Shown: positions 697 through 10,937 of the stretch, piece by piece
Numbering within the stretch: position 1 is the stretch's first letter
Layout: each line of letters starts with the position of its first letter
From: an uncultured Prevotella sp.
GTDB taxonomy: Bacteria > Bacteroidota > Bacteroidia > Bacteroidales > Bacteroidaceae
NCBI GenBank assembly: GCA_947303825.1
Contig: CAMYZK010000048.1
Coordinates: 1-10,937 of the forward strand
Length of the DNA stretch: 10,937 bases
Direction: 5' to 3'
The notes under the pieces: model-generated
The model's database searches: none
What the model was told of the DNA's origin: nothing
The model's input: only the letters and a program-made list of their open reading frames with translations
Translations under genes and position numbers: made by a program

Positions 697-742
697 TCTT
701 CTTTTTCTCTTTTAACACGAATGGTCTTTTTCTTTTAACACG

Positions 743-760
743 CGCTCGGCTCTGCCGCTT
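743..760 (-). repeat. 18-nt dispersed core, copy 1 (intergenic)
   Basis: On the minus strand this reads AAGCGGCAGAGCCGAGCG. It is identical over 18 nt to the copy at 9846-9863 and matches 17 of 18 nt (16 contiguous) at 2279-2296. It contains the short inverted repeat CGGC-AGA-GCCG. Here it lies in the leader of the SLOG gene. Three copies of such a string in 11 kb are not expected by chance, so it is probably part of a dispersed repeat family. Confidence 0.75.
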
Positions 761-810
761 GCTACCAACGGGACGCAAGAATGACCACGAATTATACACG
801 AATAATTTTA

Positions 811-2180: not shown

Positions 2181-2190
2181 ATTTTTTTAC

Positions 2191-2222
2191 TTGTCAACTC
2201 ATCAACTCATCAACTTGTCAAC
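2191..2222 (-). repeat. Octamer array 2, four 8-bp units between two operon genes
   Basis: On the minus strand this reads exactly GTTGACAA, GTTGATGA, GTTGATGA, GTTGACAA. It directly abuts the stop codon of the 2300-residue gene and fills most of the 42-bp gap before the lipoprotein start at 2180. Changes in unit number would alter the spacing and leader of the lipoprotein start but not any protein. Confidence 0.85.
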
Positions 2223-5200
2223 TTATTTAACCACTATCTTATGGCCGTTATGCAGGTATATGCCCTTCTTAAACGTTGCGCTCGGCTCTGCCGCCTCGCT
2301 TGTCGAAGAACGTCGAACAATACGTCCTTGCAGGTCATAATACTTATCCTTTGACGATTCTCTATCCAGTTTTTCTTGAATACCTGTTCCTTGGCCACTA
2401 ATGAGGTAGGCCCGTGCCCCAATAGCCCTTGGCACAGCCAGCCAGCCTTTGTGCCGGCCTCCAATGATGAAGGCACCGCCACTGGCTTCGCCCCAGAACC
2501 ATCCGAAGCTCTGTGCCAGCGATGTGCCGCTGGGACCATAACATAGCTTGTAGAACAGGTTGTCACCGTCGGCTGTTGTCCATACGTCATCATCACTGCC
2601 GTGGAGCAAGTTGGTGCCTACGGCTGGTACGCCAACCGCCGTGGTGCTGGTAAGGGTGAACGTGGCGGCTTGCCTGGGCGTAGCCTCAATGAGCACAGCA
2701 GTTCCTTGTGGTATGATGCCACTTGTAATAGGCTGATACACCAGTCGTCCGTTCTGCACACCGCTCACCACGCTGGCCGTTAGTCCCTCAGGCAGCAGGA
2801 AATCATGCGCTGAGTCAAAGAACGTACAGTAGCCTGCATCGGCTGTCTGTATGGTAATGGTCACTGGCTGAGGCTGTGGTTGTCCGTTCTGGCGGATATA
2901 GTATACGAAGACTGCCTCGTCGCTGTCCTCAATTCCCTCGGCCACGGCCATGCATCGCACCGTCACCTCATAGGCATCTTGGTTGAGGACGATGCCCTTG
3001 ACTGGGTCGTAGACGCTGAGCGTACCGCTGTCGCTGCACAGGCAGCTGCCGTCGAGGGTGTAGATGATGCTTGCACCATCAGTAGTGGAGCTGAGGTAAA
3101 GGCGTGTGCCAAAGTCTACTACCGAGCCGGTGGCTATCGACGATTTCGGTTCGGCACAGATAAAGTCGTTCTTCTCCTTTACGCCCACCATGACGTATTT
3201 CTCCACATCGTCCTGCTCTATGCTCAGGCGGAGAGCCGTGGTACCGAGAAGCTTTCCGTTGATGGTAAAGGTGGCCTTTCCGTCGGTTCCTAACGTCACG
3301 CTCTGTACGTCGGCAGTGGCAATATCTGTGGCCATCGATGTAATGGTGAGCACTTTCCCGCTGGCAGCCTCTGCTGGCAGGGCATCGATGGTTATCTGCT
3401 TCTGCTGTCCGTAGAGGAAGGTTACCAGCGAGTCGGCAACGATGGCCTCCACCACCCTCTCCACATCGAAGGTCTGTGTATAGGCCTCGGCCATGGTCAC
3501 TCCGGCGTAGCTCTCGGCAGTAGGAGCCACGGTGAGTGTGAGCTGCTGACCAAGGGAGAAGCCCCCTCCGGCTCCCCCCACGGTGGAGGGCACGAAGCGC
3601 AGGGAGCGCACGTAGGCCACGGAGTCGGGGCTGTAGGTCTGGTCAAGCAGCTGCAGCGTGCCTTCCACGGCATTACCGTTGAGTGTCACGGTAATCGCAT
3701 CGGTAGTAAGCGTGGCGGGCTTCATCCACTTGTCGAAGGTGAGGCTGACACCCTGCTCTGTTGCCCTGGCGCGCATCACCACGGGCTGCGAGAACTGGCT
3801 CATAGGCACGTTGATGTCGAGCTGTGGTGGCGGCACAGGCAGCCACTCGGTGGTGGTGGTCTGGTAGCCCTGCTTCTCGAACTTCACCTGCCACAGACCC
3901 TGCGGCACATCCCAGGCATACTCGCCGTTCTCGTCGGTAAAGAGGGGGTTGTGCTGGGCATATTCCTCTGCATTCCACACCACTATGCGCTCACGCTTGT
4001 CGCCATACATGTCCTCATACGCTTCCTTGTAATAGATAGTAGCTGTAGCCCCCTGCACGCGGTTGCTGGCCACTGCCTCGTAGACATATCCGGAGGGGTC
4101 GAGAATGGGCTGTGAACCACCGGGGAAGTCGCCGCCGTTGCGTCCGCCACGGCTGCCTCCGCCTCCGCGACCGCCACGGCCGCCGCCATTGCTGCCATCA
4201 CCATCGCCATTGCCGCCATCGGGATCAGGCTTTGGACCGCAGTTGCTGCCGTCGCCGTCGGAATCTCCGCCCATGAGGCCCTCGAAGAACTGCCACAGCT
4301 TGTTGGTGCGCTTATTGCGCTTGAAGAGGTTGGCACCGGCACGTCCGCTGTCAATGTTGAAGTTGTCGCCATCGTCGCGCCAGCAACCGTCCACCTCGTC
4401 GCCCGGCTTGAGGTCTCGCTTCTTGCACTCCAGCTGTTTCACCTTATACCTGAAGCCCTCTACCATTGCTGCCGTCTGCTCATTGTGCTTGAGCAGTGCC
4501 CAGTAGTTTACCGCAATGGCAGCCATGGCGGCCACGACGGCTCCCAGCGAGATGCCTCCTGTCTCGGGGGCTGCTATCAGTCCGCCGAAGGTGACGCCAA
4601 TGCTGGCCAAATCGCCCGTGATGAGTGAGCTGTAGTACATGGCCGTGCTGCGAGCTGCCGAGTAGATGTCATCGCGCAGCCGGTCGGCCTTATCCTGTTC
4701 GCGCGGGCACTCTGTGGGCACCATGGTGTAGAGCCGTTTCAGCTCTTCCATCTCCTTCAGTTCATCGCGAATGTTGCGCATCAGGCTTGCTACGCTGATG
4801 AGCTTGCCGCCCCATTTGCCGGCCTTCAGGTTTTCGAGTTTCTTCAGAGCCCACTTAACGCTGCCTCTGAATCCCGACAATCCCTTGAGCTTGGCAAACT
4901 TGATGCCCAGCCTGACAACGTTCTCCCTGCCCTCAGCGCTGCGGACGTAAGCCCAGAACGACTTGTTAAGGGCCTGGTAGCTGGGTTCTATTTCGTTGGC
5001 CACCTTTGTAAGGCGGTCTATGCACTGGTCAACGGCCGAGAAGAACGACGACAGCTCGGCAAAGAACTCGTCGCCCTTCTTTCCCAAATAGTCGATGGTA
5101 GAAACAAACCAGCTCAGGGCATCGCCACCGCTGCCGGCCCTGAACGCTGTGGCTGCCCGTGCACCGGCAATGGCCGACATGTTGAGGGTGAAGACGATAT

Positions 5201-8200
5201 TGTCGGCCAGGCTCACCAGGCTTACCAGCGTTGGTGTTATCTTTATGTAGAAGGGAGCCTCGCCGGTGGGCATCTCCTCGTAGCCATCCTGCAGCAGGGC
5301 GGTGCGTGTCAGCCCGTCGGCAGTACGTATGGTGAGTCCGGGCACCTTGGAGTAGCACGATGCATCGAAGAGGTCGGTAGTGAAGATGCCGTCGATGGTG
5401 GGCTGATAGAGTGCCAACAGCCTGTCGGCCTCGTCGAAAGCCCAGTCGAAGTCTTCCTCGTTGAGCACAAAGTCCTTTATGCCGTCTTCCAACGTGGTGA
5501 AGTCATCGTCGGTCAATTGGTAGAGCTGCATAAGCAGGCTGCGCATCTTTGCCGATGCCTCTGCGCCATACTGCTCCAGTAGAGCTTCCATCTGGCTGAA
5601 GATGGTGTTCACCTCCTGGTCTATACGCTGTTTGTCTGCCTTCCAGCTGTTCAGGTCGCCAAGCAGGGTGTTCACCATGCGCTTGTCGGCAAGCGGCTGG
5701 CGGTGGCTCGTCACCTCCACATGAATGTTATGTGGCAGCGACGTGGTGTTGAAGATGTCCTTTGCCACCCAGCGGTTCTGTTCCTTGTCATAGACACATT
5801 CCAGCTTACGGTAGCGTTCGGACCCTGTGGTGAACACCCACAGCATGACCTGGCTCACCACGGTGGTGTCGTTCTCTGTAAGGTCTACGGTGAAGGTGAT
5901 GTCGGTAGGAACGCCTGGCAGGTTGGAGAAGTTGTACGACTTTGCCTGCGGCTGCATGGTCTCGTAGTCCCATACGAAGCGCTCGGTGAACATGTGTACA
6001 GGGTGATAGTTGAAGAACGACATCTCCACCGTCTTTGGCTTGACATGCCCCTGTTCGTAGACTACCATCACCTCGGCCGTTGTCACCGTCTGCCCTGTCT
6101 CAGGGTTGGTGATGAAGGCGTTGACAATGTGTGCCGAGTTGTTCATCAGCGGCTGTCCGTGCAGAGTGCATTGTGCCATCCAGTCACCACTGGGGCTTGC
6201 GGTGGCAGCTCCTAGGAGTATGCGCTGGTCATCGTATACCTCGATGGTTGAGCCCGGCGTGGCCTGTCCGCTGGCAATGAACTCCGGCGTGCTGGTTGTG
6301 AGTGGAGCCTGCATAGTGGCATCGTCGATGATGTAGGTGTCGGTGCTCAGATACTCAGTGTAGGTCTGTCCCTGGTATTTGAACGTCACCTTCATCATGA
6401 GCTTGGCATCGTCGGAGGCCTCTCGCGCCAACCAGCACTCACGCATCTGGCGGGCATAGTCACGTCCCAAGCTGATGCTGCGGCTGTTACCAAAGCTGTA
6501 GACAGTGTTTCCCACCATGGTCGAGCCGTCTACGTAGGCTGAATGCTCGGTGTTGGTCGCCAGGTCGCGAGTAGTGACAACCACGTCGTTCACCTCGGCG
6601 GCATACTCCTCACGGAAGGCCAGCTGGAGGCGCAGCGTCTGGTAGCTGCCCACCACGAGCTCGGTCTTACTCAGGCTAAGGTTGGTACGGCGGTTGTCTA
6701 TGAACCGCTGTATATTTGAGTTCACCGCAGGCACGGCATCCCACTTGACGAGCTGCCAGCGTGCATCGCTGACGCTGACGCTGCTCTTCACATAGTCATC
6801 GCCCTCAGTGAGCAGCCGTTGCACGTCGCCCAGCGTGAGCAGTGCTCCAAGCAGCGTGCCTAGGTTGCCCTCGCCGCCGGTGAGTCCCACGACGGTGTAG
6901 TTGCCTGCAGGCAGCGGCTCGGTAACGGCTACGAAGAGAGTATCCTGCTGCACGCCGCAGCGGTAGCGGTTTACCAGCTGTCCGCCGCTGTCGAAGAGCA
7001 GGACGTAGGTACCGCGAGTGGGGGTGTTTATCTCTATGCTGCCACGCTCAACAATGTTGAGGGCGAAGTGCAACGTGCTGTCGGCATGTTCTACAGTGGC
7101 AGTGGCAGTGGCTGGTGCCAACTCGCCATCGGGGTCGGTGGCAGTGAGCAACAGCTGCGTACCTACCGGCAGTGGCTGGCTGAGGCGCAACTCACGGTCG
7201 TTGACACGTGCCACACCTCCTATATCCTCACCTGTGGTGACGTTATGCAGGGCGAAGCGAAGCAAGGTACCATCGGGCAGTCCGGCAGTGGGAGATGGTG
7301 ACGTGTCGCCGTCGGCAGCCTCAGTATAAGTATAGTCCAGCTGAATCCACTGTCCACGGTTAGGAGCCATGTAGATGTTTAGCTCACCCTTAGGCCGAAC
7401 TTCCACGCGCTGCGTCTGCGTGGCATACTGTCCGCTGCGGTCGCACACGGTGATGTCATAGATGCCTTGCGGCAACCCTTCCAACTCGGTGAACTCAATA
7501 TAGTTGAACCAGTATCTTGGGTCTGCAACATTGGTGCTGGCATCTGGCACAGCACCGCTGTAGAGCTGACGCTGTCCTGTGGCAAGGGGCTGGGCGAAGC
7601 TTATGTTGTAAGAACCGCCTCGCAAGAAAGGTCTGACGTTCACCTGATAACGGCAGCGAGGCACCTCGACGAGTTTGTAGACGTGGGTGAGCATGCTGTC
7701 GGTAACGGTGATGCTCAGCGTGTCCTCCATCTTGTAGTATAGCCAGCGGCTAATGTTGTCAAGCCTGATAATGGCCTGCAGCTGCTGACCGTTTACCACG
7801 CCATGCACCGTCGGCCCATGCTCAATGAGGTTGCCCAGGGCATCGTTCCAGCTGACGTGTATGCTGGCATCCTGATAGTCGTAGGTGAAGCCGAGGCTCG
7901 TCACCAATCGCAGGTCATGGGGCCAGTGTATGGCGGTGGAGGTGAAACTGACGTTGGCTCCGTCGTCATCAACATAAACGTTCTGCTGCTGCGCCAGCAC
8001 AATGCCGCGTCCGTTTACCAGCTGCACGTCGTAGACAGTGTTCACCGGCAAAGAGCGGAAGGTGTATTCCTTGCGGCTGCCCACCACCATGCGGCGCACC
8101 TGTTGCGTCTTGGTGTTCACCAGCTCAAGGGTCATGTTGCGCAGCATGGGCAGCTCGTCATTGCTTATGTCAAAGCCGATGGTGAGCGGTGCAGCGTTCT

Positions 8201-9125
8201 GGTCGATAGGCAGTATGGTAAAGTCCTTCCATACGGGAGCCTTCTGATAGAGGGTTATGGCCTCGGCAGGCACGAAGACGGTCATGTCGGGGTTGGTAAA
8301 GCAGTCGGTGGCAGTCACCTCAGGCGGTGTGACTGCGAAACATGTAATGTTTTGCAGTGGCTTTTGGTTGAAGCCGTAGCCGTTGATGGTACGCATGGTG
8401 CTGGGCAGCAGCACGTCGGTCAGCGCATTGAGGGCAGCGTCAAACCACTCGCGGTAGCGCCAGCCGCCTATCTCGGTGAGCGTGGTGCGGCTCAGGTCCA
8501 CCACCTGCAAGTTGGGATAGATGCTGAGGTGCTCCATCATGCCAGCCGTCATGAACGTGCCGCTGACGATGATCTTCTGCACCAGATCGCGCTCGGTTTC
8601 GGGCACGGTGTTGCGGAAGGCGTCCCAGTCGCCCCGCTCAATATTGTCAACTATGAGCGTTCCGGCAGCGGCATCCCAGAAGTTGGGCTGCGGGTTGGGG
8701 TTGCCAATGTTGCCAGGGTCGTAGACAAAATGCTCCACGAGGGTGATGTCGTAGTCGGGCATGATAAAGTCGGCATGGTCGAAGTCGCCGTTACGGTCGT
8801 AGGTCATCTCTATCTCTACGGGGATGTTCTGCTGCTGGGTGAACTGCTCGGTGAACCGGTAATAGCTGCGGGCATCGCGACGGAAGCTGTTATAGTGGGG
8901 TCTCAGCCTAACCTTCGCACCGGCGGGGATGCTGATGGTCTCTGCCGTGTAGTAGACGTAATCACCGTTGTCATCGGTGAAAAGATAGTTGGTCTCGCCG
9001 TTGACCACCGAGTAGTACTCGATGATGCCGTCGGGATCGCTCTTCAGCGTGAGCTTGTATTTCTGTTGTGCAAGGAGTGCCGCGGTAGCGAGGCACGCCA
9101 TGCAGAGGCTGATGATTCTTCTCAT
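2223..9125 (-). CDS. Giant secreted multidomain protein (2300 aa) with BspA-type LRRs, Ig-like modules and T9SS-like C-terminal domain
   Basis: A complete exported protein. Residues 1-20 are a Sec signal peptide (MRRIISLCMACLATAALLAQ). A BspA-type leucine-rich segment lies at about 150-308 (NLQVVDLS, CFAVTPPEV, VFVPAEAITLYQKAPVWKDF). Beta-rich modules follow to about 1140, including a bacterial Ig-like unit near 948-985 (ATPGSTIEVYDD ... GDW). Residues 1142-1600 are mainly helical with a hydrophobic Gly/Ala-rich pair at about 1505-1545. A Gly/Asp linker (1619-1672) leads to a module starting DPSGYVYEAV (about 1676) with WLPVPPPQ at 1761-1768, which I recall from large surface proteins of other phyla. 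A chitobiase C-terminal-like domain is at about 1990-2078 (IIYTLDGSCLC ... VTVRCMAVAEG). The end, YYDLQGR ... KGIYLHNGHKIVVK, fits a T9SS sorting domain. ATG 9125 lies 24 bp after the upstream gene. No enzyme motif is seen; a binding or adhesive role is inference. Confidence 0.9.
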   Translation of the reverse strand: MRRIISLCMACLATAALLAQQKYKLTLKSDPDGIIEYYSVVNGETNYLFTDDNGDYVYYTAETISIPAGAKVRLRPHYNSFRRDARSYYRFTEQFTQQQNIPVEIEMTYDRNGDFDHADFIMPDYDITLVEHFVYDPGNIGNPNPQPNFWDAAAGTLIVDNIERGDWDAFRNTVPETERDLVQKIIVSGTFMTAGMMEHLSIYPNLQVVDLSRTTLTEIGGWRYREWFDAALNALTDVLLPSTMRTINGYGFNQKPLQNITCFAVTPPEVTATDCFTNPDMTVFVPAEAITLYQKAPVWKDFTILPIDQNAAPLTIGFDISNDELPMLRNMTLELVNTKTQQVRRMVVGSRKEYTFRSLPVNTVYDVQLVNGRGIVLAQQQNVYVDDDGANVSFTSTAIHWPHDLRLVTSLGFTYDYQDASIHVSWNDALGNLIEHGPTVHGVVNGQQLQAIIRLDNISRWLYYKMEDTLSITVTDSMLTHVYKLVEVPRCRYQVNVRPFLRGGSYNISFAQPLATGQRQLYSGAVPDASTNVADPRYWFNYIEFTELEGLPQGIYDITVCDRSGQYATQTQRVEVRPKGELNIYMAPNRGQWIQLDYTYTEAADGDTSPSPTAGLPDGTLLRFALHNVTTGEDIGGVARVNDRELRLSQPLPVGTQLLLTATDPDGELAPATATATVEHADSTLHFALNIVERGSIEINTPTRGTYVLLFDSGGQLVNRYRCGVQQDTLFVAVTEPLPAGNYTVVGLTGGEGNLGTLLGALLTLGDVQRLLTEGDDYVKSSVSVSDARWQLVKWDAVPAVNSNIQRFIDNRRTNLSLSKTELVVGSYQTLRLQLAFREEYAAEVNDVVVTTRDLATNTEHSAYVDGSTMVGNTVYSFGNSRSISLGRDYARQMRECWLAREASDDAKLMMKVTFKYQGQTYTEYLSTDTYIIDDATMQAPLTTSTPEFIASGQATPGSTIEVYDDQRILLGAATASPSGDWMAQCTLHGQPLMNNSAHIVNAFITNPETGQTVTTAEVMVVYEQGHVKPKTVEMSFFNYHPVHMFTERFVWDYETMQPQAKSYNFSNLPGVPTDITFTVDLTENDTTVVSQVMLWVFTTGSERYRKLECVYDKEQNRWVAKDIFNTTSLPHNIHVEVTSHRQPLADKRMVNTLLGDLNSWKADKQRIDQEVNTIFSQMEALLEQYGAEASAKMRSLLMQLYQLTDDDFTTLEDGIKDFVLNEEDFDWAFDEADRLLALYQPTIDGIFTTDLFDASCYSKVPGLTIRTADGLTRTALLQDGYEEMPTGEAPFYIKITPTLVSLVSLADNIVFTLNMSAIAGARAATAFRAGSGGDALSWFVSTIDYLGKKGDEFFAELSSFFSAVDQCIDRLTKVANEIEPSYQALNKSFWAYVRSAEGRENVVRLGIKFAKLKGLSGFRGSVKWALKKLENLKAGKWGGKLISVASLMRNIRDELKEMEELKRLYTMVPTECPREQDKADRLRDDIYSAARSTAMYYSSLITGDLASIGVTFGGLIAAPETGGISLGAVVAAMAAIAVNYWALLKHNEQTAAMVEGFRYKVKQLECKKRDLKPGDEVDGCWRDDGDNFNIDSGRAGANLFKRNKRTNKLWQFFEGLMGGDSDGDGSNCGPKPDPDGGNGDGDGSNGGGRGGRGGGGSRGGRNGGDFPGGSQPILDPSGYVYEAVASNRVQGATATIYYKEAYEDMYGDKRERIVVWNAEEYAQHNPLFTDENGEYAWDVPQGLWQVKFEKQGYQTTTTEWLPVPPPQLDINVPMSQFSQPVVMRARATEQGVSLTFDKWMKPATLTTDAITVTLNGNAVEGTLQLLDQTYSPDSVAYVRSLRFVPSTVGGAGGGFSLGQQLTLTVAPTAESYAGVTMAEAYTQTFDVERVVEAIVADSLVTFLYGQQKQITIDALPAEAASGKVLTITSMATDIATADVQSVTLGTDGKATFTINGKLLGTTALRLSIEQDDVEKYVMVGVKEKNDFICAEPKSSIATGSVVDFGTRLYLSSTTDGASIIYTLDGSCLCSDSGTLSVYDPVKGIVLNQDAYEVTVRCMAVAEGIEDSDEAVFVYYIRQNGQPQPQPVTITIQTADAGYCTFFDSAHDFLLPEGLTASVVSGVQNGRLVYQPITSGIIPQGTAVLIEATPRQAATFTLTSTTAVGVPAVGTNLLHGSDDDVWTTADGDNLFYKLCYGPSGTSLAQSFGWFWGEASGGAFIIGGRHKGWLAVPRAIGARAYLISGQGTGIQEKLDRESSKDKYYDLQGRIVRRSSTSEAAEPSATFKKGIYLHNGHKIVVK
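2279..2296 (-). repeat. 18-nt dispersed core, copy 2, inside the sorting-domain loop
   Basis: The minus strand reads GGCGGCAGAGCCGAGCG preceded by A, a 17/18 match to copies 1 and 3. It is translated as part of SEAAEPSA, in the loop between YYDLQGRIV and KKGIYLHNG of the 2300-residue protein. That loop is about 16 residues here and commonly shorter in such domains (from memory), so an in-frame repeat insertion is likely. Confidence 0.7.
3574..3590 (-). repeat. GC-rich hairpin in coding sequence, doubtful repeat relic
   Basis: CCCCCCAC G GTGGAGGG forms a stem with one C-A mismatch and encodes part of VPSTVGGAGGG at about residue 1845-1855 of the 2300-residue protein. It resembles the CCTCC/GGAGG hairpins at 9439-9455 and 9780-9798 but has no long identity with them. 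It may just be a Gly-rich loop. Confidence 0.25.
4110..4271 (-). other. Low-complexity Gly/Asp/Arg linker in the giant protein
   Basis: This stretch encodes about 54 residues dominated by Gly, with Asp-rich pieces (DSDGDGSN, DPDGGNGDGDG) followed by Gly/Arg pieces (GGGRGGRGGGGSRGGRNGG). It separates the helical central region from the DPSGYVYEAV module. The DxDxDG-like spacing could bind calcium, as in thrombospondin type 3 or dockerin loops, but the short motif alone does not prove this. Confidence 0.7.
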
Positions 9126-9149: not shown

Positions 9150-10937
9150 CTACTTGATGATGACTTTCCGTCCGTTCTGAATGTAAAGGCCCTTTGGCAT
9201 TTGACCATTTGACCATTTGACCATTTTACTATTTGACCATTTTACCATTTTACTATTTGACAATTTTTCCATTTTACTATTTGACAATTTGCGGCCCTGC
9301 AGGTCGTAGAGCTGTTCGGTGTGTTGCCACCTTGTCGCAACAGTTGGGACGGCGGTGATGCCATTGCCAATACGCAGCTCGAAGCGGTTGGCAAAGGTGC
9401 CGGCCTGGGTGGTAAAGGTATAGGAGCCTGCCACCGCCCCCTCCCCTAAGGAGGGAAGAGCAAGCTGGGTGCAGGTGTTCTCTTCGTGGTCGATAAGGGT
9501 GACGGGAGTGTCAGCGGCAGAACCGCTGTCCATACTACCGCCGCGCACGCTGAGGGTCAGGGTGTAGGTGCCGCCCTCAGCGACGGTGAAGGCCAAGGGC
9601 ACAAGGCCATCGTCGAGCGGGCGCTCGTTGATGCTGTAGCTCACGCCGCCCTGGTGCGACCAGAGGGCGGTGGCCTCGGCGGGAGAACCGCCGAGCACAG
9701 TAGCCATGAAGGGGGCATCCTTGCCACGGTCGTAGCGCAGGGTGGCCTTCGGGTTTACAACAACACGGGTACGTGAACTCCCCTCCATTGGGGAGGGGTT
9801 GGGGGTGGGCTCTCCCTCCTCTGAAGAGGGGTTCTTTGCTAAGCAAAGCGGCAGAGCCGAGCGGGGGGTGGGTTGCAAAGTGATGTCATATACAACACGC
9901 TGGCTGCTCATGGCGGCACGGCGGGCACTGCGGGAGGTGGCGGCGTGGTGCACGTCGCGGTTGTCCTGCCTACCGTCCTTGCCAAAGGTGAGGGCCGCCA
10001 GCTCGTCGGTGCGCTGGATGAAGAAGGCCTCGTTAGGTCGCAGGATGTAGTCGTCGTCCAAGGGGCTGTAGGCCGTGAAACTGTTGTTGTACCTCACAAG
10101 GATGGGCGACTCCGTCTGCAGCTGCACGATGTCGTAGTAGCACAGCCAGGGGTTGGCCACGGCATTCCAGCCACGGTTGTGCTCGAACTCGCCGCGCCAG
10201 TCGGTGAGCGGCAACGTAACGTCATTATTGCCGAAGATGTAAGTGTTGGCACCCTCGCGGGCGTTGAAGTAGAAGTCGGGAGTGGGCTGATACTGCCACA
10301 CACCGTAGATGTCGCGCACGAAAGCGGGGTCGTAGCGGAAGCAATAGCCCTGTCCGGCACGCAGCGTGTCGGTCATTTCGACTGTCTTCCATGTGTGGGT
10401 ATAGTCGCCAGTGGCGCGGGCCTGACTGTCATAGCGGCGCACGGTGAAGGGAGCCTCGGGGTATTGGGCCGTGATGTCGGCACGGCAGATGTCGGCCGGC
10501 ACGGTGATGAAGATCCACGAGCTGGTCCAGCTGTGGGGCTGGAAGAGCATCTCCACACGGTCGGCTGTCATCTCTCCGTCAACGATGAGCGTAGGGCTGG
10601 TGGCCTGATACCACGGGCCGAGGTAGTGGGTGTGGCGGTAGGTGGCAGCGGTAAGCTGGCCATCGGCAGCCACATGAAGCTTGCCCCACTGATACCAGTT
10701 GGCAGCTTCGTTCCAGCTGACTAACACGTCGCGCTTACGGTCGGACAGGCTGTTGGTGGCATCAATGGTGCACGTATTGGGTACAACGAGCAGGCCTGGG
10801 TCATAGCCTCCCTCTATGGGTAGCACGTTCTCTGATGGGTACATATCTTGGAAGCGAGACTTCCAGGCAGCGAGCGTGACTTGCGGCACGTAGATCTTGG
10901 TGGTTCTCTCCCACGGACCTAATCCGGCAAAAGCCCC
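9150..10937 (-). CDS. Secreted BspA-like protein with T9SS-like C-terminal domain, N-terminus cut by window
   Basis: The frame is open to the right edge, so the GTG at 10889 is internal and about 595 C-terminal residues are visible. The first residues, ending WERTTKIYVPQVTLAAWKSR then FQDMYPSENVLPI, match the end of a BspA-type leucine-rich region. A beta-rich domain common in Prevotella surface proteins follows: GWNAVANPWLCYYDI (around 10170-10125), DDDYILRPNEAFFIQR (10062-10015), then a strand pair RVVYDITLQ and TRVVVNPKATLRYD. The end, LYDLQGRKL ... PKGLYIQNGRKVIIK, is a T9SS-like sorting domain. Three repeat-like insertions lie in frame: a palindromic element (9778-9875), a short hairpin (9437-9456) and an octamer array (9195-9290). 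It is the first visible gene of the operon, 24 bp upstream of the 2300-residue gene, which it resembles at both N-terminal and C-terminal domains. No enzyme motif seen. Confidence 0.85.
   Translation of the reverse strand, partial: GAFAGLGPWERTTKIYVPQVTLAAWKSRFQDMYPSENVLPIEGGYDPGLLVVPNTCTIDATNSLSDRKRDVLVSWNEAANWYQWGKLHVAADGQLTAATYRHTHYLGPWYQATSPTLIVDGEMTADRVEMLFQPHSWTSSWIFITVPADICRADITAQYPEAPFTVRRYDSQARATGDYTHTWKTVEMTDTLRAGQGYCFRYDPAFVRDIYGVWQYQPTPDFYFNAREGANTYIFGNNDVTLPLTDWRGEFEHNRGWNAVANPWLCYYDIVQLQTESPILVRYNNSFTAYSPLDDDYILRPNEAFFIQRTDELAALTFGKDGRQDNRDVHHAATSRSARRAAMSSQRVVYDITLQPTPRSALPLCLAKNPSSEEGEPTPNPSPMEGSSRTRVVVNPKATLRYDRGKDAPFMATVLGGSPAEATALWSHQGGVSYSINERPLDDGLVPLAFTVAEGGTYTLTLSVRGGSMDSGSAADTPVTLIDHEENTCTQLALPSLGEGAVAGSYTFTTQAGTFANRFELRIGNGITAVPTVATRWQHTEQLYDLQGRKLSNSKMEKLSNSKMVKWSNSKMVKWSNGQMPKGLYIQNGRKVIIK
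9195..9290 (-). repeat. Octamer array 3, twelve 8-bp units in frame in a sorting domain
   Basis: Twelve consecutive octamers, on the minus strand mostly AAATGGTC, AAATAGTA and AAATTGTC with single variants. Three octamers make 24 bp, so the translation is an 8-residue repeat (KLSNSKME, KLSNSKMV, KWSNSKMV, KWSNGQMP). The array lies between YDLQGR and KGLYIQNG of the C-terminal domain, ending about 40 bp before the stop. Twelve units keep the frame; any change not divisible by three would not. Confidence 0.95.
9437..9456 (-). repeat. Short CCCTCC/GGAGGG hairpin in coding sequence
   Basis: CCCTCC (9439-9444) and GGAGGG (9450-9455) pair around CCTAA. The translation is LALPSLGEGAVAG, between TCTQ and the strand SYTFTTQAG of the partial protein. 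It resembles one arm of the element at 9778-9875 and could be a truncated copy inserted in a loop. Confidence 0.45.
9778..9875 (-). repeat. Composite palindromic element inserted in frame in a coding gene
   Basis: About 95-98 bp built of consecutive hairpins: CCCCTCC/GGAGGGG (9780-9786 with 9792-9798), CCTC/GAGG (9818-9821 with 9826-9829), CTTTGCT-A-AGCAAAG (9834-9848) and CGGC-AGA-GCCG (9849-9859), flanked by G-rich strings GGGGGTGGG and GGGGGGTGGG. It encodes a Pro-, Ser- and Glu-rich piece (QPTPRSALPLCLAKN, then PSSEEGEPTPNPSPMEGS) that separates the strand RVVYDITL from TRVVVNP. From memory, GC-rich palindromes of this kind occur between genes in Bacteroidota; exact ends and family are not established. 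Confidence 0.75.
9846..9863 (+). repeat. 18-nt dispersed core, copy 3, inside the composite element
   Basis: The plus strand reads AAGCGGCAGAGCCGAGCG, identical to copy 1 (743-760, minus strand). It forms the right part of the palindromic element, directly after the CTTTGCT/AGCAAAG hairpin, and is read antisense by the host gene as RSALPL. Its orientation relative to the host gene is opposite to that of copy 2. Confidence 0.8.

What the first reader, a model, noticed from the sequence alone, without database searches (positions are those of the whole stretch)
9195..9290. Octamer array in a T9SS-like sorting domain could switch secretion by frame
Twelve 8-bp units (96 bp) interrupt the C-terminal domain between YDLQGR and the final KGLYIQNGRKVIIK. 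Only unit changes in multiples of three keep the frame. In one other frame the reading ends about 20 codons later, and in the other it runs on into the next gene; both lose the terminal sorting motif. Slippage could therefore toggle whether the protein is anchored or exported, a contingency-locus design. The array is seen directly; switching is inferred.
Basis: partly seen in the sequence, partly recalled or inferred. Interest (0 to 1): 0.75.

Follow-up and report, generated by a model that had tools for sequence, protein, structure and literature searches.

The report
In-frame octamer repeat in sorting tail
An 8-letter DNA repeat sits in frame in a flexible loop of a secreted protein's export tail in a Prevotella-type bacterium; it belongs to a genome-wide repeat family that, outside genes, mostly sits right at start codons, and nothing seen here shows that it works as an on/off switch.

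Summary
The array is real: minus strand, 9198-9293, twelve 8-bp units counting the one that begins with the Arg codon of YDLQGR. The host sequence is a T9SS type A-like sorting tail. The switch reading found no support. The tails that two motif searches found in this genome (21 with DLQGR, 26 with KG[ILV]YI, overlapping sets) all read in frame, as do 7 octamer linkers from five other MAGs. The four long CTD arrays hold 6, 6, 9 and 12 units; five shorter linkers carry a 7-bp unit that restores frame. The octamer, GTMAAATD, is genome-wide: 62 double-unit hits against 3 for the control, including an in-frame insert in an mnmA-like gene. Outside genes it behaves as a start-codon element: 45 of 50 arrays have a same-strand ORF start within 60 nt, 8 of 53 on the other strand; the ATG is in register with the 8-bp unit in 27 of 45. 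Best reading: a coding member of a dispersed 7/8-bp array family, kept in frame by selection as a disordered spacer; a new variant of short tandem repeats such as TAACTGA (PMC4679880). Variation between strains or reads could not be tested.

The parts
9198..9293 (-). Octamer array, 12 units of 8 bp counting CGCAAATT; reads KLSNSKMEKLSNSKMVKWSNSKMVKWSNGQM after the Arg codon
9150..10937 (-). Host gene, 595 aa seen, 5' end runs off the contig; relative of longer LRR (PF13306) proteins with a C-terminal sorting tail
9292..9308 (-). First conserved block of the sorting tail, YDLQGR (last base of the Arg codon is in the array)
9150..9194 (-). Last conserved block of the sorting tail, KGLYIQNGRKVIIK and stop; predicted as two strands (residues 583-594)
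2223..9125 (-). Next ORF, 2300 aa, with its own tail of the same kind (YDLQGR ... KGIYLHNGHKIVVK) and no octamer array; TIGR04183 at 12.6 bits, below its cut-off of 23

Best explanation
The array is one coding member of a genome-wide family of short (7-8 bp) tandem arrays. It lies in a permissive loop of a T9SS type A-like sorting domain, between the YDLQGR block and the last beta hairpin, and is translated as a flexible spacer. Unit changes that break the frame lose the last block, so selection leaves only lengths that keep it: multiples of three octamers, or a series with one 7-bp unit. Shown: the array, its frame, the unit counts in four paralogous tails, the family and its contexts. Inferred: purifying selection as the cause, and spacer as the role. 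Outside genes the same octamer family mostly sits at start codons, often with the ATG in register with the unit; the window array itself is not at a start (73 nt from the next one).
For: Tails in frame: 21 of 21 DLQGR tails (24 hits; 3 are not tails) and 26 of 26 KG[ILV]YI tails (30 hits; 4 have no stop nearby and are not tails); 7 of 7 foreign octamer linkers from five MAGs. Unit counts 12, 9, 6, 6 in CTDs; 5 of 13 noncoding arrays of the family have a length divisible by three. The reading frame of each of the four CTD arrays has no stop, while the 11 noncoding arrays examined (of 13) have stops in all three frames; units end in G in 22 of 33 coding and 20 of 95 noncoding units. In-frame insert of the same family in an mnmA-like gene; among 29 MnmA loops read, 7 are minimal and others carry different repeat-like inserts. 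Array residues 560-576 have pLDDT below 50, the last block forms strands. Family genome-wide.
Against: Only consensus assemblies of one genome per species were seen. Samples are small: four long CTD arrays, and the foreign 36-nt linkers may share descent. Two of the four CTD arrays (C203, C13b) are also free of stops in a second frame, so stop avoidance is not strict. Lag-24 excess is not specific to coding arrays. A role as spacer was not tested; the loop may be merely tolerated.
Confidence: 0.78

Rival explanations
1. Contingency locus: slippage of single octamers toggles the reading frame and so the sorting tail, making the protein anchored or lost in a reversible way.
For: Non-triplet tandem repeat inside a surface-protein sorting domain; unit number differs between paralogous tails (6, 6, 9, 12); both other frames lose the last block.
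Against: No out-of-frame tail found; counts step by three; a 7-bp unit restores frame in five linkers; degenerate units; same family in an mnmA-like gene and at start codons; nearest orthologue of the C13 array protein has no array.
Confidence: 0.08
2. The array is neutral residue of a mutational process (slippage or copying of 7/8-bp units) that lands anywhere tolerated; it has no role as spacer.
For: MnmA loops of different species carry unrelated inserts at the same place; arrays are lineage-specific, and GTMAAATD pairs are found in 18 of 60 genomes of the genus; 7 of 29 MnmA loops are minimal.
Against: None that is decisive here; this differs from the best reading only in the role given to the loop. 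Start-codon register in the family outside genes suggests that position is not random there.
Confidence: 0.12
3. Assembly artefact of a fragmented metagenome bin.
For: 385 contigs, 70.7% complete.
Against: The family and such linkers occur in independently assembled genomes; a preserved frame and register with the start codon are not expected from assembly error.
Confidence: 0.02

Closest known systems
TAACTGA heptamer direct repeats (MacGregor 2015, PMC4679880; abstract, passages and sections 3, 7 and 15 read)
   Same: Short odd-length tandem units, many copies per genome, forward orientation, mostly a few nt upstream of start codons, a few inside ORFs; also reported in five Bacteroidetes.
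   Different: Here the unit is the 8-mer GTMAAATD, the ATG is in register with the unit, and stop-free copies sit in frame inside a sorting tail and an mnmA-like gene. In that paper forward repeats inside ORFs necessarily end them, because they carry stops in all frames.
Long simple sequence repeats of 5-11 bp units (Mrazek et al. 2007, known here only through the introduction of PMC4679880)
   Same: Heptamers are said there to be the commonest class in most genomes; period 7 is the commonest here as well.
   Different: Here period 8 is frequent too, and one octamer family is bound to start codons.
Short tandemly repeated repetitive (STRR) heptamers of cyanobacteria (recalled; one search gave a listing only)
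   Same: Dispersed heptamer arrays in and between genes (recalled).
   Different: Other phylum and units; not compared by sequence.
Contingency loci by slipped-strand mispairing (recalled; tract variation of Moraxella uspA1 and uspA2 via PMC4679880)
   Same: Non-triplet repeat in a surface-protein gene.
   Different: No off-frame allele seen, degenerate units, counts in steps of three.
T9SS type A sorting domain (TIGR04183)
   Same: Y-x-L-x-G and KGxYI..GKK blocks at the C-terminus; a T9SS sortase in the genome.
   Different: The window tail itself does not match TIGR04183 at E of 1 or 10, and carries a 31-residue repeat linker.

Membership tests
T9SS type A sorting domain (TIGR04183) | Match to the family model | tested here: inconclusive
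   5 of 26 tails of this genome match at E up to 1, best 6.4e-6; the window tail does not
T9SS type A sorting domain (TIGR04183) | T9SS present in the genome | tested here: met
   NF033707 sortase, 994.9 bits over three pieces in one frame, cut-off 420; of 14 control genomes 2 rang, none over the cut-off. Other T9SS parts not searched
T9SS type A sorting domain (TIGR04183) | Relation to solved CTDs | tested here: inconclusive
   Profile of 26 tails: gingipain CTDs at E 0.05-0.13; an arabinanase chain (4kca) at 2.1e-9
Contingency (phase-variation) locus | Off-frame alleles exist | tested here: not met
   None among 21 and 26 tails of the consensus genome and 7 foreign linkers; alleles within one species not available
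Contingency (phase-variation) locus | Long run of perfect units | tested here: not met
   Longest identical run: 3, 4, 2 and 1 units in the four CTD arrays
Contingency (phase-variation) locus | Reversible change within a population | not testable with these tools
   No reads or second strain
Start-codon short tandem repeats of the TAACTGA kind | Many dispersed copies in one genome | tested here: met
   62 double-unit hits, 19 arrays, control 3
Start-codon short tandem repeats of the TAACTGA kind | Forward orientation just upstream of start codons | tested here: met
   45 of 50 sense, 8 of 53 antisense, 43 of 45 within 13 nt. True of the family outside genes, not of the window array
Start-codon short tandem repeats of the TAACTGA kind | Same unit (TAACTGA) | tested here: not met
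   Unit is GTMAAATD, 8 bp

The most novel reading that the evidence does not exclude
GTMAAATD arrays are a dispersing translation-start module of Prevotella. Outside genes they form a leader whose 8-nt unit is set in register with the start codon (NNNNNATG), giving an A-rich initiation region in a phylum that lacks Shine-Dalgarno sequences. Because 8 is prime to 3, a stop-free version reads as the same cyclic octapeptide in every frame, so copies can be taken up inside genes, as in MnmA loops and T9SS sorting tails, and then persist only in lengths that keep the frame, mostly steps of 24 bp.
Probability: 0.3. Interest if true: 0.7.

Novelty: new variant of a known kind. Interest (0 to 1): 0.45.

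Why it matters
It replaces a tempting switch story with a general one that can be tested: the four Prevotella-group genomes sampled carry 25 to 195 arrays of 7/8-bp units per Mb, and the octamer family among them abuts start codons, often in register with the ATG, and enters protein loops in frame. If the register is functional, it is a new kind of leader in a phylum that starts translation without Shine-Dalgarno sequences (PMC6847099, abstract). If it is only mutational, it is a clear natural record of where tandem growth is tolerated. It also warns against calling non-triplet repeats in Bacteroidales genes phase variation on sight.

Tried and rejected
Switch by frame: tested against own-genome tails, foreign linkers, homologues and noncoding arrays of the family; no support. 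Search for a second strain through proteins: apart from the genome's own P0107, the nearest were 39% (window protein) and 72% (C13 protein) identical. One search used a 595-aa fragment, so relatives longer than about 1041 aa were not candidates, and only the 7994 candidates sharing most words were scored. P0124, an orthologue without the CTD, was followed as a possible off allele: I compared its end with P0123 by eye, and among 398 genomes only 5 matched at E up to 1e-200, best 56% identical, so its DNA was not seen; cause left open. Lag-24 excess as proof of 24-bp duplication: rejected, noncoding arrays can show it too. Pfam on the window tail gave two weak unrelated hits.

Literature on such arrays in Prevotella: searches gave no paper, five and fifteen (twelve listed), none of them on this by title and start of abstract; one was opened by passages and is unrelated (PMC11388281). 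Broader listings. Most papers of subscription journals are not in this library.

Limits of the counts. MnmA loops: 30 loci fetched, the best by E-value of 187 genomes with a match; 29 fitted the motif; the lag values have no shuffle control, and the palindrome-like class is by eye. Gene starts in the surveys come from a simple ORF rule of mine, not from annotation. The start-codon count takes the first ATG that opens 60 codons, which favours ATGs inside an array; without those the register is 18 of 36. The 45 cases come from this genome and 11 of the 17 other genomes that had the pattern, 40 stretches, and some appear to be the same gene in two genomes, so the binomial values are too optimistic. 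An earlier count said 17 other genomes; 11 is right. Besides periods 7 and 8, TRF also lists period 9 (14, 1, 17 and 11 rows) and 12 (9, 9, 23 and 10 rows) in the four samples, so 7 and 8 stand out against 4-6 and 10 rather than against everything.

Full report
WHAT IS THERE. The window is G000:C48 of a 2.63 Mb, 385-contig genome (70.7% complete). The gene at 9150-10937 (minus strand, 5' end off the contig) ends in YDLQGR, a repeat, and KGLYIQNGRKVIIK. The repeat is 12 octamers, 96 nt, 9198-9293, if the unit that holds the Arg codon is counted. Lag-8 identity is 0.83; the maximum of 20,000 shuffles is 0.52.

IS THE TAIL A T9SS SORTING DOMAIN. An alignment of 26 tails of this genome shows two conserved blocks, Y-x-L-x-G and KG[ILV]YI..GKK, with the array in the gap between them; the second block was the search motif, so only the first is independent. 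Five of 26 match TIGR04183 at E up to 1, best 6.4e-6; the window tail does not. The profile finds gingipain CTD structures only weakly (E 0.05 to 0.13) and an arabinanase chain, 4kca, clearly (2.1e-9). The genome has a T9SS sortase (NF033707, 994.9 bits over its pieces; none of 14 control genomes reaches the cut-off, two ring below it). I take the tail as T9SS type A-like. The model of the window protein (mean pLDDT 82.1, 41 sequences) puts residues 560-576, within the array, below 50 and the last block in two strands, 583-587 and 590-594.

IS IT A SWITCH. (1) Of 24 DLQGR hits in the genome, 21 are tails, each in frame up to a stop; 3 are not tails. Of 30 KG[ILV]YI hits (control 0), 26 are tails in frame with at least 123 open codons upstream; 4 have no stop nearby. 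The two sets overlap. (2) One scan of the genome-contig collection for DLQGR plus two octamers gave 8 stretches: 7 Prevotella or Prevotellaceae tails from five MAGs, all in frame, and one match in a Chromatiaceae MAG that is not a tail. In the genus, 3 of 299 genomes including this one have the pattern. (3) Units, counting CGCAAATT: 12, 9, 6 and 6 in the four long arrays. One shorter linker here (C216, L090) and four foreign ones (L109, L110, L112, L116) run 5+8+7+8+8 = 36 nt, where the 7-bp unit restores frame; the foreign ones may share descent. Of 13 noncoding arrays of the family, 5 have a length divisible by three. (4) The reading frame of each of the four CTD arrays has no stop, though two of them also have a second open frame; the 11 noncoding arrays examined have stops in all three frames. 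Units end in G, which avoids TAG at the junction, in 22 of 33 coding and 20 of 95 noncoding units. (5) Units are degenerate: the longest identical run is 3 here, 4 in C203. (6) Of 139 homologues returned by two searches, 115 have a CTD-like core by a loose motif, and only P0107, from this genome, shows the octapeptide. The nearest orthologue of the C13 array protein, 72% identical, has a plain short linker. Together this speaks for a spacer that selection keeps in frame. It does not exclude rare off-frame cells, since only consensus assemblies were seen.

THE FAMILY. GTMAAATD twice in a row occurs 62 times in this genome against 3 for the reversed pattern, in 19 arrays, 6 of them coding with an open frame through the array: four CTDs, an mnmA-like gene, and one further gene. 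The mnmA-like gene carries an insert of about 36 residues. Among the 29 MnmA loops that fit the motif, of 30 fetched from 187 genomes with a match, the loop is minimal in 7, has lag-7 identity of at least 0.54 in 8, has the octamer array in this genome (lag 8 0.54), carries a C/G-rich palindrome-like insert by eye in 8, and is unclear in 5. So one and the same loop takes unrelated repeat inserts, in frame.

NOT ONLY ONE UNIT. In 374 kb of this genome TRF finds 49 period-7 and 24 period-8 arrays, none in a local shuffle. Density of 7/8-bp arrays is 195 per Mb here, 105 in G149, 88 in G260 and 25 in G016, from samples of 374 to 400 kb; periods 4 to 6 give 0 to 2 rows per sample, but periods 9 and 12 are also well represented. 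Of the 73 arrays here, 21 lie inside ORFs. Of the 52 others, 19 lie within 15 nt of a start and 27 within 15 nt of a stop, where random placement gives 10% and 9%: arrays tend to fill gene edges of both kinds, so closeness to starts is not a trait of all families.

START CODONS. For GTMAAATD arrays outside genes, from this genome and 40 stretches of 11 others, 45 of 50 with room have a same-strand ATG ORF of 60 codons or more within 60 nt, against 8 of 53 on the other strand; 43 of the 45 are within 13 nt. The ATG falls at positions 6-8 of the 8-bp register in 27 of 45 (expected 5.6): 9 of 11 in this genome, 18 of 34 in the others. Without cases where the ATG lies inside the last unit it is 18 of 36. 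The next commonest register holds 7 of 45. A stands at -3 in 29 of 45 and at -6 in 35 of 45, against 43% at each for 221 starts of this genome; the array's own composition explains part of this. A at -3 is a positive determinant of initiation in Flavobacterium johnsoniae (PMC6847099, abstract read). The window array is not at a start: its 3' end is 73 nt from the next ORF.

COMPARISON. The nearest described thing is the TAACTGA heptamer of Beggiatoaceae, Cyanobacteria and five Bacteroidetes, mostly forward-oriented just upstream of start codons (PMC4679880; abstract, passages and sections 3, 7 and 15 read). Its introduction reports that heptamers are the commonest long simple repeats in most genomes (Mrazek 2007, not read by me). 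Here the unit, the host and the in-frame use inside a sorting tail and an mnmA-like gene differ. My searches listed no paper on such arrays in Prevotella. Hence: new variant of a known kind.

VERDICT. Observation right; switch reading unlikely (about 0.08); in-frame member of a dispersed array family, acting as a spacer, about 0.78, with plain neutral residue as the nearest rival. The most novel reading not excluded is a register-locked start-codon leader module that has also been taken up by genes.

Noticed in passing
Own-genome loci L001, L031-L044 and other-genome loci L259-L298: GTMAAATD arrays outside genes abut start codons on the same strand (45 of 50), with the ATG in register with the 8-bp unit in 27 of 45.
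   Followed up: partly
L119:8148-9416 (minus) and loci L137-L166: An mnmA-like gene carries an in-frame octamer array in a loop; the same loop in other genomes carries heptamer arrays or C/G-rich palindrome-like inserts.
   Followed up: partly
window 2189-2226 (minus): Another period-8 array (unit about TTGATGAG) lies between the stop of the 2300-aa ORF and the start of the 164-aa ORF at 2180.
   Followed up: no
window 741-762, 2278-2302 and 9848-9864: A dispersed element around CTCGGCTCTGCCGC, seen by eye; in two places it lies inside ORFs, one of them the linker of the neighbour's sorting tail (SEAAEPSA).
   Followed up: no
window 9438-9460 and 9780-9835 (minus): C/G-rich palindrome-like stretches (PSLGEG, PNPSPMEG) inside the same host gene resemble the inserts in MnmA loops, by eye.
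   Followed up: no
L117-L136: Other 7/8-bp families recur in this genome (AACTCTT, AGTGAAG/TCTTCAC, CCAAACGA, CGTTATTA); several period-7 arrays lie in gaps between convergent genes, so not all families are start-codon elements.
   Followed up: no
protein P0124: An orthologue of the C13 array protein lacks the sorting tail after EVKEVREVKE; whether by frameshift, insertion or assembly is unresolved.
   Followed up: partly
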